Positions 37 to 64,000 of a stretch of 64,000 bases of DNA are shown here, in pieces. This stretch comes from Eunapius fragilis. Lineage: Eukaryota > Porifera > Demospongiae > Spongillida > Spongillidae. Numbering within the stretch: position 1 is the stretch's first letter; each line of letters begins with the position of its first letter. The notes beneath the pieces are model-generated. The model was not told where the DNA came from. It saw only the letters and a list, made by a program, of their open reading frames with translations, and made no database searches. Where the stretch lies: positions 320,693 through 384,692 of the forward strand of contig OY811982.1 of NCBI GenBank assembly GCA_963681505.1, in the 5' to 3' direction. A program made the position numbers and the translations under genes.

Positions 37-542
37 TCAGTTTTCATTCGTCACCGTTCCAACATGTGTTGCCATGTACTCCAGTGCTTCCTCAGCGATC
101 CCTCCCATCATTATGTCATCGGGGTGCTGAATGTAACAAAACAATTATATAATTAATTTAAACCTCAAAGCTGAATAGAAAAAGTACTACTCAATTTCGT
201 ACTTTGTGCCACTTTTTACAAATGCCCTAGTTATTAATCTTCCAAGTCATTTGACTTGCTAATTAGCAATTGGGAATACCTATATGGTTGATATAATGTT
301 ACATGTGTATGCATATAACATCATGCTTACATAGTATTGCTTACATAGTAAGTGACATACACAAGTTGAGTCATTGAATGTTTGATGCACAATTTTTTCC
401 ACAAAATAAATAGTTACAGCTTGTTCTACCCACATACCTGCTTGATCTCACATTCCATACAAATGACATTGTGCGCATCAAAAGGGAAAGTTTCAATTCT
501 ATCCACTTCTGTATAATGACCAACAGTAGGAGCAGGTTGTAT
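37..542 (-). CDS. Copy A cytoplasmic tail: two last exons
   Basis: The penultimate exon, 542-438 (105 nt), starts after an AG acceptor and ends CAG before GTATG. It encodes a tail with the segment TEVDRIETFPFDAHN, which matches copy B (TEVDIIETFPCDAYN). The last exon, 126-37 (90 nt), starts HPDD, contains ALEYMATHVG and ends at a TGA. Both exons are phase 0 on each side, so they join cleanly to the last kinase exon (1570-1390). The last exon differs strongly from the tails of B and D, which end in a YEYQN motif; here the only tyrosine is in EYMA. The tail is presumably a docking segment for signalling proteins, which is inference. Confidence 0.75.
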
Positions 543-1389
543 CTGAAGAATAATATATGGTACAGATGAATGGTACTATTGTGTGAAGAGATATAATGAC
601 TATAATATCATTAGACCTATTGCAGTTTGCTTATTGTTCAGGTGTGAATAGGGAATTTGCTTTAAGATATCACGATTTCGTTCTCAGCAGCAGCTATTAA
701 AAGCTTCAGTGTTATTTGTCGATTTTCGCAATTCCGAATTGTCCCAACGCAAATTATTGTAATCAACTTCGACATTGTCCTCGAAATTTTCTAATTGCTT
801 TGCCGGATTAAAGGCTCCTGCACACTATCACTGCAAGCTGACTATGGTTATAAACCGCGTATAAACGCACATAATCGAATTATGTGCGTTTATACCAAAT
901 ACATACGAGGTTTTGTAGTTTATATGACCATAGCCTGCTAGCAGTGTAGCAAATCACATGGTACAAGTTTAAGGTTTTACATGATTTGCAGTCTAAACTA
1001 CAGATCTTAATAATGTTATAATCAGAGTATCAGTAAATACAATGCCATACTTGCACTTAGTATGTCTTTGTTGGCAATGTTAGGATAAAATGGCTTCGTC
1101 TTCAAAACAATGCATATTTGATTCTACATCCTACACCCTTGCACAGTAGTGTAAACACTTACACTATGAAATATTTAGATCACTTCAGAAGACATAACTT
1201 GCCATTGCCCTGTCTGTGAATGTTATGGCTGATGCAAATCATCTGTGTTTCCTGAGAGCTACCTCCCACTGATGTAATCATTAAATTGTATTATTGCATG
1301 ATATGTTTATCCAACCACTCTGAGCACAACAGAATGGTGGAAACCACTGATATGCACAAATAATGCTAGAAACATAAACTGATTTTTAC

Positions 1390-2903
1390 CAGTAATGGTT
1401 GTCTAATCCCATCCTGCATAGCTGATACTTTGGCTGTGTCGGCTGCTGATTGTGACATGTCAAGATATCCTGCAATTATCTGTAGAGCCTTTGAGATGGT
1501 GGAGGCAATCATGGTGAATGATGGTCTGTCCTCAGGGTCAGGATCCCAACACTTCAACATCAATGTGTACCTGAAATAGCACAGCTCATGTGTATCACAG
1601 ATGAAGTGTGTATTGATTGTGCTTGTGCGCTTGTATGTGTGCATACGTGCATGTGCATTTGTATGTGTGTATGTTCATGGATGCATGTCTGAATGCATGT
1701 GTGTGTGTAGATGTGTGCATGTGTAGCAGTACTAACATTGTATCAGAACAAGCTGCATTTTCAGGCTTCTCCAGTCTCCTCCCTCTCTCTAGTAACTTTG
1801 GTAGTTCACTTGGGTCCACACCAGGGTAGGGGATTTTGCCACATGTGAATATCTCCCAGCATGTCACACCAAATGACCACTGAAGGAATATTGCCACATA
1901 TATGGGACAGTACCTATAATGGTTTGAAAACTATTTCAAATACTCACTACATCAGTTTTCTCATTGAAGACCCCATCATGAATGCTCTCTGGAGCCAGCC
2001 ATTTGAATGGTAGTCTCACCCCTGAGGATCCCATGTCCAATCTGAAGTACCCTGTCCTGTACACATCTTCTGACAGACCAAAGTCTCCCACTTTAAGTAC
2101 ACCATCTCCATCAATCCTGTACAAACCTCCATTACCACTATTAACATCACACATCATCACTCCCTCACATGCAGTTTCTTGCTGCTAGGTCTCTGTGTAC
2201 AAACTTCTTCTCAGCAAGGTATTCCATCCCCTGTGCTATCTCATAACATATCTTCATTAAGAGCTTCTGGGATGTGTGGAGCTGTATAGATACCAATGAC
2301 ATGGAAATTTGTGGTACATGTACAAAGAGATAATCTCACTATTTCATCATCTGCTGCTTCAGAGATGATAAGGGAAGATCCTTTGTTTCTGAGGTATGAG
2401 AGAACACTTCCATTAGCCATGAAGGGCATCACTATGGAAGGAGTGTGATTGGCATCAAAGGACACTCCTATCAGGGTCATCACATGGGGGTGGTGGAAGT
2501 CTTGCATTTTCAAGATTTCACCCATCATACTTGAGAGGTCATTCATTGTGAAAAGACCTAAAGGGGCACTTCATCTGATGAAGGAAGCATTACCACCAAT
2601 GACTTCACCTTTCAAGGTCTTGACAGCCACCAGTTGAGGTTCAGCCAGTGTGTTCACCTGAAGGAGATGTGCTCTGTACACCACTCCAAATTCACCTTTT
2701 ACATAGCATATGGATTGATGTGGAGAAGAACACCACATTAAGAACAGGGTGGGGAAGGAATGTCACATGAAAGAGTTGGCAGGTTGAGTTACCTTCTCCA
2801 ATGGTATTCAGAACATGGATCTGATCACTGGAGATGATGGTCCCTGTGTACTGACTCAGGAAATCTGTTGCAGCATGACCACTAACTGCTGATGATGGGT
2901 CTC
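1390..2903 (-). CDS. Copy A tyrosine kinase domain (seven exons)
   Basis: Exons on the minus strand: 2903-2793, 2695-2609, 2557-2340, 2266-2169, 2116-1948, 1879-1737 and 1570-1390, all with GT..AG borders. The first two give the glycine loop (IGEG/GEFGVVY) and VAVK with the ATP lysine. The third has the C-helix glutamate (MMGEILKM). The fourth has the catalytic loop HRDLAARN. The fifth has DFG, the activation segment with tyrosines ([11 protein letters not shown]) and the [10 protein letters not shown]+1 loop. The sixth has [14 protein letters not shown] and the seventh has [12 protein letters not shown]. All residues expected of an active tyrosine kinase are visible and no frame break is seen. 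The short introns and their positions are identical to copy B. Confidence 0.88.
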
Positions 2904-3550
2904 CTTATGTACAATTTTAAAAAATGTACTTTATAATACATGTTAGCAACTATACCTTCTGAGCTATATGAATCTATTTCCTGCCATTGGTAAATTTTCA
3001 TGTTTACCTAGGCAATGTAACTTTGCCCTGATAATGAACCAGCATGGCAGTAGCAATACATGTACAGTCAATGATATAAATTTTTGAAAGGAATATAACA
3101 CTAATTATTAAATGGAGAATGTGAGTGCGTATTGCTTGACGATGCATAAGGCAATGAAAGTACAGAGTTCATGGTGATGACCATCTATATTGGATAAAAA
3201 GGAATAAAGTTGCATGAAATATAACATAGCAGGCACATGGTTTAAAACTGCATTAAGTGAGATAATCGTTTGACATATATGGACAGTCATGAGAGGAAAC
3301 ACTTGGACCATTTCCTCAAGTGGCAATGCTCACGTTTCAAAGTAGAACATTGATGGGGCGTATCTATATGTACTCCTCAATTCTTGTATTGTAATGACAT
3401 TATGTCAGAAACGCTCCCACAAATTTAAAAGGTAACCGTTTCATACTCATTTCCTAGACGATGACACACATACACACACTCGCACATATGCACACATACA
3501 CATGTGCACAACTAAACACACACACATCCACACACCACAGTTGACATTAC

Positions 3551-3803
3551 TTCTCTTGTGCTCCTCAGTAATTGTCTTCATCTGCATCATCAGAGCATCC
3601 AACAGGCGACTCTTCTTTAAGGAATCTCTTCTGTGGACCACCAATATGATGGCCATAACCAGTACCAGGAGGAGAATGAGGCTGACTCCACCGCCTGCCA
3701 TACCTCCTGCCACAGCAGTGACTGAGAACTGTGACACAGTGCTTGTCACAAATGTGATATAGCCAGGTGTATAGTTCAGGGATGTGCCCACTAATATTGC
3801 TAC
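3551..3803 (-). CDS. Copy A membrane-spanning exon
   Basis: The exon lies between an AG acceptor at 3804-3805 and a GTAATG donor. It encodes a short extracellular stretch ending FSVTAVAGG, a hydrophobic helix of about 22 residues (GGGVSLILLLVLVMAIILVV), then a basic stop-transfer sequence (HRRDSLKKSR) and an acidic juxtamembrane segment (MKTITEEHKR). It splices in phase 1 straight to the first kinase exon at 2903, so the juxtamembrane region is short. The single helix followed by a kinase defines a type I receptor layout. Confidence 0.85.
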
Positions 3804-3933
3804 CTACAGGGAGCAAGGGTACATACATGCAGGCACATGCACACACACACACACACACACACACACACACACATACACACACATGCATATATGAATAAAA
3901 GGACATTCAGTTGCATTTCCAACAAGGTCATAC

Positions 3934-63177: not shown

Positions 63178-63233
63178 AGCTACAATACATTATTACCACT
63201 ACTAAGTATAGCTATTTCTAGTGAATTCGTCAA

Positions 63234-63332
63234 TTAATTCTGGTATTCGTATTCATTTTCATTCTTCACCACTCCACCATGTGGTACAGTTGGAACCACT
63301 CCCATCTTTGTGTCATCGCTAACTGCAGGATG
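63234..63332 (-). CDS. Copy D last exon (tail), gene extends beyond the window
   Basis: 99 nt, 33 codons: HPAVSDDTKMGVVPTVPHGG ... NEYEYQN and TAA at 63234-63236. It is preceded (in gene sense) by the AG acceptor at 63333-63334. It keeps the reading frame and the YEYQN end of copy B, with a 27-nt shorter middle. The 3' flank is also conserved with B. The kinase exons would lie to the right of the window. Confidence 0.7.
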   Translation of the reverse strand, partial: HPAVSDDTKMGVVPTVPHGGVVKNENEYEYQN

Positions 63333-63585
63333 CTGAACGTAACGAAACAATTATAAAGACATTAGAACTGAATAGAGATAGTACAATTCAATTTCATTTT
63401 TTCTGAGTGTCATTTTTTTACTTTTTAGACTCGCTTATTAGCACTGGAAAATACAAGGATTGAGAAGTAATACTTCAGTTTACTTGCATGTCTTTACCAT
63501 GTGCTAGTTGGATTTATTTATTTATGCTGAATACTTTGGTTTAAGTGTATGTGATCAGAGTACCAGTAATTACAGCTTGCTATGC

Positions 63586-63659
63586 ATACCTAACCTGATG
63601 AGATCGTATGCATCACAAGGGAAATTTCTGTATCAGTAACCGTAGAAGCAAGTTGTATG
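63586..63659 (-). pseudogene. Copy D penultimate exon, decayed
   Basis: Matches copy B 19299-19210, but the acceptor is CTGCAC instead of CTGCAG and 16 nt are missing (the part coding VDIIE), which shifts the frame. So copy D probably cannot make the normal tail unless this exon is skipped; exon 90 nt in B is phase 0 at both ends, so skipping would keep the frame. Confidence 0.65.
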
Positions 63660-63730
63660 TGCAGTGCAGTATATATTCAAAGTCATAAACGATTGCAGCA
63701 TTCAGTAGCAGCAGGTATTTAAAGAGTGTA

Positions 63731-64000
63731 CTGTTCCTATGTGTTATGCACAAATTGCACAAATTGAAAATTTGTGCATAACACATAAAATTTGTGCTAT
63801 TTCACAATTGTCCTTCACAATTTGAAAATTATTGCGTACTGATTTCAAAATTGTGTTTGTTAAAATTGAATGTTATTTCAATTGTGCTGCACAATCATCA
63901 TACCTGCATGCAGTCTGAACTATAACATATTAAATTGTCTAAGATACAGGTTGCATTCTTCAATTAAGGGTGCTGAAGTATTGAACACTGAATTAGGGTT
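63731..64000 (-). repeat. Copy D intron, homologous to 20870-21105 in copy B
   Basis: Long shared words (TGCTATTTCACAA, TTGAAAATTATTGCGTACT, AGTCTGAACTATAACATATT) continue to the window edge, confirming that D is a paralogous copy and not an isolated exon. A D-specific inverted repeat (TGTGTTATGCACAAATTG / CAAATTTGTGCATAACACA) sits at about 63740-63788. Confidence 0.8.

What the first reader, a model, noticed from the sequence alone, without database searches (positions are those of the whole stretch)
37..64000. Tandem array of Met/plexin-like receptor tyrosine kinases, all on one strand, in different states of decay
At least four copies plus a kinase fragment lie on the minus strand within 64 kb. 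Each has a different mix of intact and broken parts. Copy A has an intact kinase with a broken ectodomain, B is nearly whole, C has an ectodomain only and D shows a tail only in this window. This is a birth-and-death receptor cluster, as seen for expanded receptor kinases in sponges. The broken ectodomain/intact kinase contrast invites a test for gene conversion or kinase-only products.
Basis: partly seen in the sequence, partly recalled or inferred. Interest (0 to 1): 0.75.

Follow-up and report, generated by a model that had tools for sequence, protein, structure and literature searches.

The report
Sponge plexin and kinase receptor array
The window is a piece of a two-million-base gene array in a sponge where receptors with a plexin-like outer part are joined to either a tyrosine kinase or a plexin tail, with copies swapping segments and many decaying, which makes it a candidate recognition system worth testing.

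Summary
The observation largely holds. Three receptor copies plus a kinase remnant lie on the minus strand; none of the three is intact. "D" has no receptor exon here: the next kinase starts 482 bp beyond the window. The window is about 3% of a C12 array (0.04-2.25 Mb) with 42 sema-exon loci, 27 kinase loci and 14-15 plexin tails (Plexin_cytopl 5e-52, Plexin_RBD 2e-27). A kinase receptor read in full has a complete plexin ectodomain (best PDB hit plexin-A2, 6e-69), the architecture called Met-LP in bilaterians. Near-identical sema exons (95-96% in six of seven pairs) occur on kinase and plexin genes, while transmembrane exons split by tail. Inside the sema exon, silent divergence between types is about 0.65 in two hypervariable blocks but 0.07 in the inner core; the blocks occur in 6 of 12 combinations. 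Kinase and sema silent divergence are uncorrelated (14 genes, Mantel r 0.04). This points to inter-locus gene conversion or recombination, not simple decay. Copy A has a 65-bp plexin-type tract inside its TM exon. Four of 12 loci read through without frameshift or stop. A recognition role (allorecognition or microbial) is inferred, not shown; no expression data were available.

The parts
1453..2856 (-). Copy A: P-loop exon and kinase exons K1-K6, open frames, catalytic K, HRD and DFG present
3555..3803 (-). Copy A: transmembrane exon, mosaic; 3595-3659 is a plexin-type tract (7 consecutive diagnostic columns) flanked by kinase-type columns
3910..7549 (-). Copy A: broken ectodomain (TIG/PSI; sema exon internally deleted, HV1 type-3 stub fused to the last 40 aa)
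9115..9751 (-). Kinase remnant (parts of exons K4-K6 only)
21599..23237 (-). Copy B: kinase exons; P-loop/juxtamembrane exon exactly duplicated (22801-23365)
23987..24235 (-). Copy B: transmembrane exon, kinase type
24426..27590 (-). Copy B: PSI and TIG exons; 4-nt insertion (frameshift) at about 25662
27736..28629 (-). Copy B: sema-position exon. HV1 28354-28629, core 28054-28332, HV2 27775-28032
29161..29724 (-). Copy B: N-terminal lectin-like exon (no Pfam family in this copy; 1 of 8 homologues weakly Laminin_G_3, 0.005)
50269..53438 (-). Copy C: PSI/TIG remnants, stop at 53073-53075; everything 3' of a truncated TIG exon is missing
53605..54498 (-). Copy C: sema-position exon, open frame, types HV1-4/HV2-3
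55098..55541 (-). Copy C: lectin-like exon, broken at its 5' end
63130..64000 (.). So-called copy D: repeats shared with other stretches between genes, no receptor exon found; the next kinase is outside the window

Best explanation
The window lies in a sponge tandem array in which a complete plexin-type ectodomain (sema-position exon, PSI, TIG, TM) is joined to a tyrosine kinase module, to a plexin RBD/RapGAP tail, or to no detected tail. Gene conversion or unequal recombination homogenises most exons and moves ectodomain segments between tail classes. Two old, divergent blocks of the sema exon survive as a small set of types in mixed combinations. Inferred working model: paralogues with the same binding face signal differently (kinase versus RapGAP) or act as decoys, giving a recognition-receptor repertoire at sponge cell surfaces. 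Shown by sequence: array, architectures, mosaic blocks, constraint on kinases. Inferred: expression, splicing, ligands, recognition role. The confidence given is for the structural and exchange part; for the recognition role I would say 0.35.
For: Array extent. Composite plexin tail: PF08337 5e-52, PF20170 1.6e-27. g120 ectodomain: best PDB hits plexin-A2/A4/A1, 6e-69, about 700 residues; MET 1.7e-22. Kinase/plexin gene pairs: sema exon 95.0-96.0% in six of seven pairs (91.7% in the seventh); TM exon 78-84% in five of the six pairs with TM held. AU rejects kinase genes as one clade in HV1 (1e-6) and HV2 (3e-39); the tail changes at least 4 and 8 times there but once on the TM tree. Silent divergence between types: HV1 0.66, inner core 0.07, HV2 0.65. 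Sema and kinase dS uncorrelated, 14 genes; sema dS larger in 88 of 91 pairs. Two kinase regions 99.9% identical over 2045 bp while their TM is 85% and sema/lectin stretch 91% alike. 4 of 12 loci without frameshift or stop. A plexin-group receptor and a Sema-domain gene rise 6 h after LPS in the sponge Halichondria panicea (PMC8242945, passages).
Against: No transcripts, so expression and splicing are unproven. Pfam sees Sema in only 7 of 30 exons at E up to 1, best 0.0072; the PDB profile search gave designed and WD40-type propellers, not Sema proteins; the fold failed (pLDDT 35). Genome-wide Pfam Sema finds 3 places, none in the array. For plexin-tailed genes the sema-to-TM link rests on spacing and strand. 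One kinase gene, g825, is as far from B in the TM exon (84.4%) as from plexins (81-84%), and the g805/g1673 pair is 88.7%. The TM split has support 87, not starred, and left out the very divergent g1497. HV2 within-type pN/pS spans 0.43-2.37, no proof of positive selection. AU groups were named after seeing the first tree. Passages of an Amphimedon graft transcriptome paper hold no mention of plexin, receptor or tyrosine kinase (PMC5450542).
Confidence: 0.7

Rival explanations
1. Plain birth-and-death: tandem duplication, drift and decay without exchange between copies.
For: Many copies broken; tight local duplicates (C, its twin at 422 kb, and 560 kb).
Against: Silent divergence jumps about tenfold inside one exon (Fisher 7e-10 to 1e-16 for 7 of 8 chosen pairs, 0.03 for B-C). 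Kinase and sema dS unrelated. Copy A tract.
Confidence: 0.1
2. Assembly artefact: alternative haplotypes or collapsed repeats laid in tandem.
For: The unit C + 397 kb gene recurs about 47 kb away as 422 + 443 kb; the 1497 and 1511 kb copies give the same scores in three searches.
Against: 42 sema loci with dS up to 0.8 exceed two haplotypes. The 397/443 pair is 99.9% alike in the kinase region but 85-91% elsewhere. The genome is in 24 contigs.
Confidence: 0.07
3. Several independent kinase captures by different plexins, as proposed for bilaterian Met-LP, with no later ectodomain exchange.
For: Kinase tails occur in several sema clades.
Against: Kinase-gene TM exons fall together against plexin TM exons (one change, support 87), and kinases are on average 0.09 apart at silent sites whatever the sema.
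Confidence: 0.08
4. The array is real and converting, but the genes are ordinary semaphorin-type guidance or adhesion receptors; the hypervariable blocks are relics rather than recognition surfaces. It shares the structural part of the best explanation and differs in function only.
For: Plexins are thought to regulate adhesion (PMC6374515, section 13); between types HV pN/pS is about 0.5.
Against: Divergent types persist while the rest is homogenised, and are shared across tail classes.
Confidence: 0.35

Closest known systems
Met-LP receptor tyrosine kinases (Junqueira Alves et al. 2019, PMC6374515; passages, sections 12 and 13)
   Same: Complete plexin ectodomain plus tyrosine kinase; in starfish a Met-LP gene lies beside a plexin and local duplication was suggested.
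   Different: Reported there from Lophotrochozoa and Echinodermata (four in the starfish); here a sponge, 27 kinase loci on C12, exchange of ectodomain segments with plexins, and an extra N-terminal lectin-like exon in the 40-910 kb group.
Plexins of the sponge Amphimedon queenslandica (same paper, passages)
   Same: Plexins in a demosponge; four of six with truncated tails, like the tail-less loci here.
   Different: No kinase tails and no array of this size mentioned in the passages read.
MET/RON
   Same: Sema-PSI-TIG-TM-kinase order; MET and RON kinases among the best PDB hits.
   Different: MET's ectodomain is truncated; g120 matches plexin-A over about 700 residues and MET far less.
Paired receptors and allorecognition clusters (for example KIR, Hydractinia Alr; recalled, no call)
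   Same: Shared ectodomains on different tails, decoys, conversion, decay.
   Different: Different domain families; no function tested here.

Membership tests
Plexin | Cytoplasmic RapGAP (Plexin_cytopl) and RBD | tested here: met
   PF08337 5e-52 and PF20170 1.6e-27 on a composite of tail exons from three plexin-tailed loci; 58 PF08337 exon matches, each on C12 at 1.48-2.09 Mb.
Plexin | PSI and TIG ectodomain | tested here: met
   In kinase gene g120: PSI 6.6e-14, TIG 1.8e-19, TIG_2 3.1e-5; PDB plexin-A2 6.1e-69. In plexin-tailed loci: DNA of 85-98% identity to these exons over the parts held.
Plexin | N-terminal Sema propeller | tested here: inconclusive
   7 of 30 exons match Sema at E up to 1, best 0.0072; model unusable; the position before the first PSI fits
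Met-LP-type RTK | Complete plexin ectodomain joined to a tyrosine kinase | tested here: met
   g120 open from sema exon to fifth kinase exon with 20 GT-AG introns. Not shown by transcripts.
Met-LP-type RTK | Common descent with bilaterian Met-LP | not tested
   No bilaterian Met-LP sequences were at hand; best PDB rows for the kinase are an EGFR-named chain, AXL, MET, RON, FGFR3 and MER
Allorecognition locus | Polymorphism that predicts graft outcome | not testable with these tools
   One genome, no graft data

The most novel reading that the evidence does not exclude
A sponge self/non-self recognition locus in which plexin-type binding modules are reused combinatorially: HV1 types x HV2 types x tails (kinase, RapGAP, none), refreshed by gene conversion. 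Met-like kinases would then have arisen separately from plexins in sponges and been recruited as one arm of a paired-receptor system.
Probability: 0.33. Interest if true: 0.95.

Novelty: new variant of a known kind. Interest (0 to 1): 0.8.

Why it matters
Met receptors are thought to have come from plexins that acquired a kinase in the line to Bilateria (PMC6374515). Here the same kind of fusion appears in a sponge, beside the plexins, with ectodomain segments shared between the two tails, so the step can be studied where it is still in motion. Sponges tell self from non-self, and which receptors do it is open; a clustered, mosaic, hypervariable receptor family with kinase, RapGAP and tail-less members is a concrete, mappable candidate.

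Tried and rejected
Simple decay, haplotype artefact and repeated kinase capture were weighed and disfavoured (see rivals). Strong purifying selection as the cause of the conserved sema core was rejected because silent sites are alike there too. Structure prediction of the sema exon (A2, pLDDT 35.1) and the lectin-like exon (A3, 36.1), two window sequences each, failed, so no fold search was run. The PDB profile search of the sema exon gave designed 'Cake' propellers and WD40-type hits (best 1.6e-5, 13 rows). The lectin-like exon stayed unnamed (1 of 8 Laminin_G_3 0.005; one PDB row, 0.14). Pfam Sema over the genome found 3 places, none in the array.

Rows dropped: the sema tree used 42 rows, 39 from C12 and 3 of the 4 from C15; g44 and g494 were fetched but left out, and the copies at 1511, 1758 and 2940 kb and copy A's stub were not included. 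Sema dN/dS used the 36 of 42 rows with open frames; kinase dN/dS used 25 of 27 C12 kinases, two of them only in part, 297 of 300 pairs. The TM test left out g1497. The HV2 tree carries a long-branch warning, and its AU value for HV1 type 4 is 0.007.
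Full report
Where it is. The window is C12:320693-384692 of a 219-Mb, 24-contig genome. A degenerate motif for the silicatein active site (recalled) hits 10 places, the reversed control 0, which points to a demosponge; the species was not identified.

What is in the window. Three homologous receptor copies on the minus strand. A spliced-alignment script, with a gene 200 kb away as reference (g120: 20 GT-AG introns, no stop or frameshift from the sema exon to the fifth kinase exon), shows: A keeps its kinase but lost most of its sema exon and has further lesions; B reads through 21 introns with one 4-nt insertion; C has a stop and no 3' half. 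Copy D has no receptor exon here; the next kinase begins 482 bp outside. Of 12 loci tested, g120, g443, g750 and g2025 show neither frameshift nor stop (g120 and g2025 only as far as the fifth kinase exon, where the fetched DNA ends); g575 has one doubtful splice junction; g305, g89, g2152, g422, A, B and C carry lesions.

The array. Exon searches of the genome give, on C12, 42 sema-exon loci, whole or partial (my count from the 53 matches), 27 kinase loci, 44 TM exons (my count from the 50 matches) and 15 plexin first-tail exons or 14 C-terminal GAP exons. These are exon matches and lower bounds. Four kinase receptors of the same kind lie on C15. Weaker first-tail matches lie on C1 and C14. 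Loci at 1.48-2.10 Mb that seemed to lack a kinase carry plexin tail exons: Plexin_cytopl 5e-52 and Plexin_RBD 1.6e-27 on a composite of three loci. Loci at 422, 560 and 863 kb have sema and TM, and no kinase or plexin tail was seen by eye in the 3.3-4.2 kb read beyond. The lectin-like N-terminal exon occurs with genes of the 40-910 kb group and has no match at 1.49-2.15 Mb.

What the kinase receptors are. The g120 ectodomain matches plexin-A2, -A4 and -A1 over about 700 residues (6e-69), better than MET (1.7e-22); Pfam finds PSI, TIG, TIG_2 and the kinase. That is the architecture named Met-LP by Junqueira Alves et al. (PMC6374515), who report it from Lophotrochozoa and Echinodermata. The Sema fold itself is only weakly supported. 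In the PDB the kinase's top row is a 678-residue EGFR-named chain that scores as two stretches (1e-85, not looked into); then come AXL (2e-62), MET (7e-61), RON, FGFR3 and MER (60 of 562 rows shown), so it is not specifically MET. Catalytic Lys and HRD are present in 25 of 25 C12 kinases read, DFG in 24 of 25.

Ectodomains are shared between tails. In the sema-exon tree kinase and plexin genes intermix. g1762 (kinase) and g1777 (plexin) agree at 95.6% in the sema exon but 81.6% in the TM exon, while g1762 and B (both kinase) agree at 76% and 91%. Not every case is so clean: g825 and B, both kinase, agree at 83% and 84%, and g805/g1673 at 91.7% and 88.7%. Holding kinase genes together is rejected for HV1 (p 1e-6) and HV2 (p 3e-39), and the tail changes at least 4 and 8 times (4 and 3 on well-supported branches alone), whereas the TM exon needs one change (support 87, not starred). 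The AU groups were named after the first tree was seen, so the p-values are not strict. Tails were assigned by strand and spacing; for plexin-tailed genes the DNA between sema and TM was not fully read.

Mosaic blocks. Among 11 representatives the mean DNA identity along the sema exon is 0.55-0.71 in windows of codons 1-95, 0.93-0.97 in windows starting at 109-157 and 0.62-0.71 in those starting at 205-277. HV1 falls in 4 types and HV2 in 3 (39 C12 copies); the largest within-type distances are 0.24 and 0.20, the smallest between types 0.32 and 0.30; 6 of 12 combinations occur, three of them with both tails. Silent divergence where both types differ is 0.66 (HV1), 0.07 (codons 105-165; 0.14 for 100-192) and 0.65 (HV2), so constraint on the protein cannot explain the core. 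Downstream PSI, TIG, TM and kinase stretches are mostly 85-98% alike across types; some bins that include introns fall to 70-80%. For 14 kinase genes mean dS is 0.362 in sema and 0.094 in kinase, with Mantel r 0.04, p 0.44. The 386 and 433 kb kinase regions are 99.9% identical over 2045 bp, their TM 85% and sema/lectin stretch 91%. In the window, copy A's TM exon holds 7 consecutive plexin-type diagnostic columns (3595-3659; two of them are one indel) between kinase-type columns, and groups with the plexins (support 95).

Selection. Kinase dN/dS median 0.35 (297 pairs); sema 0.58 in the 40-910 kb group, 0.49 and 0.73 in two others. HV2 within types has pN/pS 0.99, 1.26, 0.43, 0.49 and 2.37 by combination: relaxed or diversifying, not proven positive.

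Reading. The structural conclusions (array, Met-LP-like architecture, shared ectodomains, block exchange) are well supported. The role as a recognition repertoire is inference by analogy. A plexin-group receptor and a Sema-domain gene respond to LPS in Halichondria panicea (PMC8242945, passages), while passages of a graft transcriptome in Amphimedon mention neither (PMC5450542). Searches of the paper library (listings, with passages) showed no description of kinase-tailed plexins in sponges; the library holds open-licence papers only, and the Amphimedon genome paper is not held.

Noticed in passing
G000 C7:2762787-2916477: 19 matches to the same lectin-like domain within 155 kb, 18 of them without a stop inside.
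   Followed up: no
window 32303-33158, 34586-34825, 45936-47020, 37313-38007: Large simple or satellite arrays between gene copies: GAAGAG hexamers, AC, a 20-mer x 54 and 37/48/84-mers.
   Followed up: no
window 35249-35931: Minus-strand frames that look like a Ty3/gypsy-type integrase remnant (by eye, recalled resemblance).
   Followed up: no
L070 (C12:851000-855100): RecQ-like helicase frames after the tail-less receptor at 863 kb (by eye).
   Followed up: no
L043 and L044: Two kinase regions 47 kb apart identical at 2043 of 2045 sites although their upstream exons differ by 9-15%.
   Followed up: partly
G000 C9, C13, C14: Other clustered tyrosine kinases, about 37-44% identical to the array kinase, many in single long open frames.
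   Followed up: no
G000 C1:7607225, C14:3905196: Plexin-like first-tail exons outside the array (75% and 63% identity); possible separate plexins.
   Followed up: no
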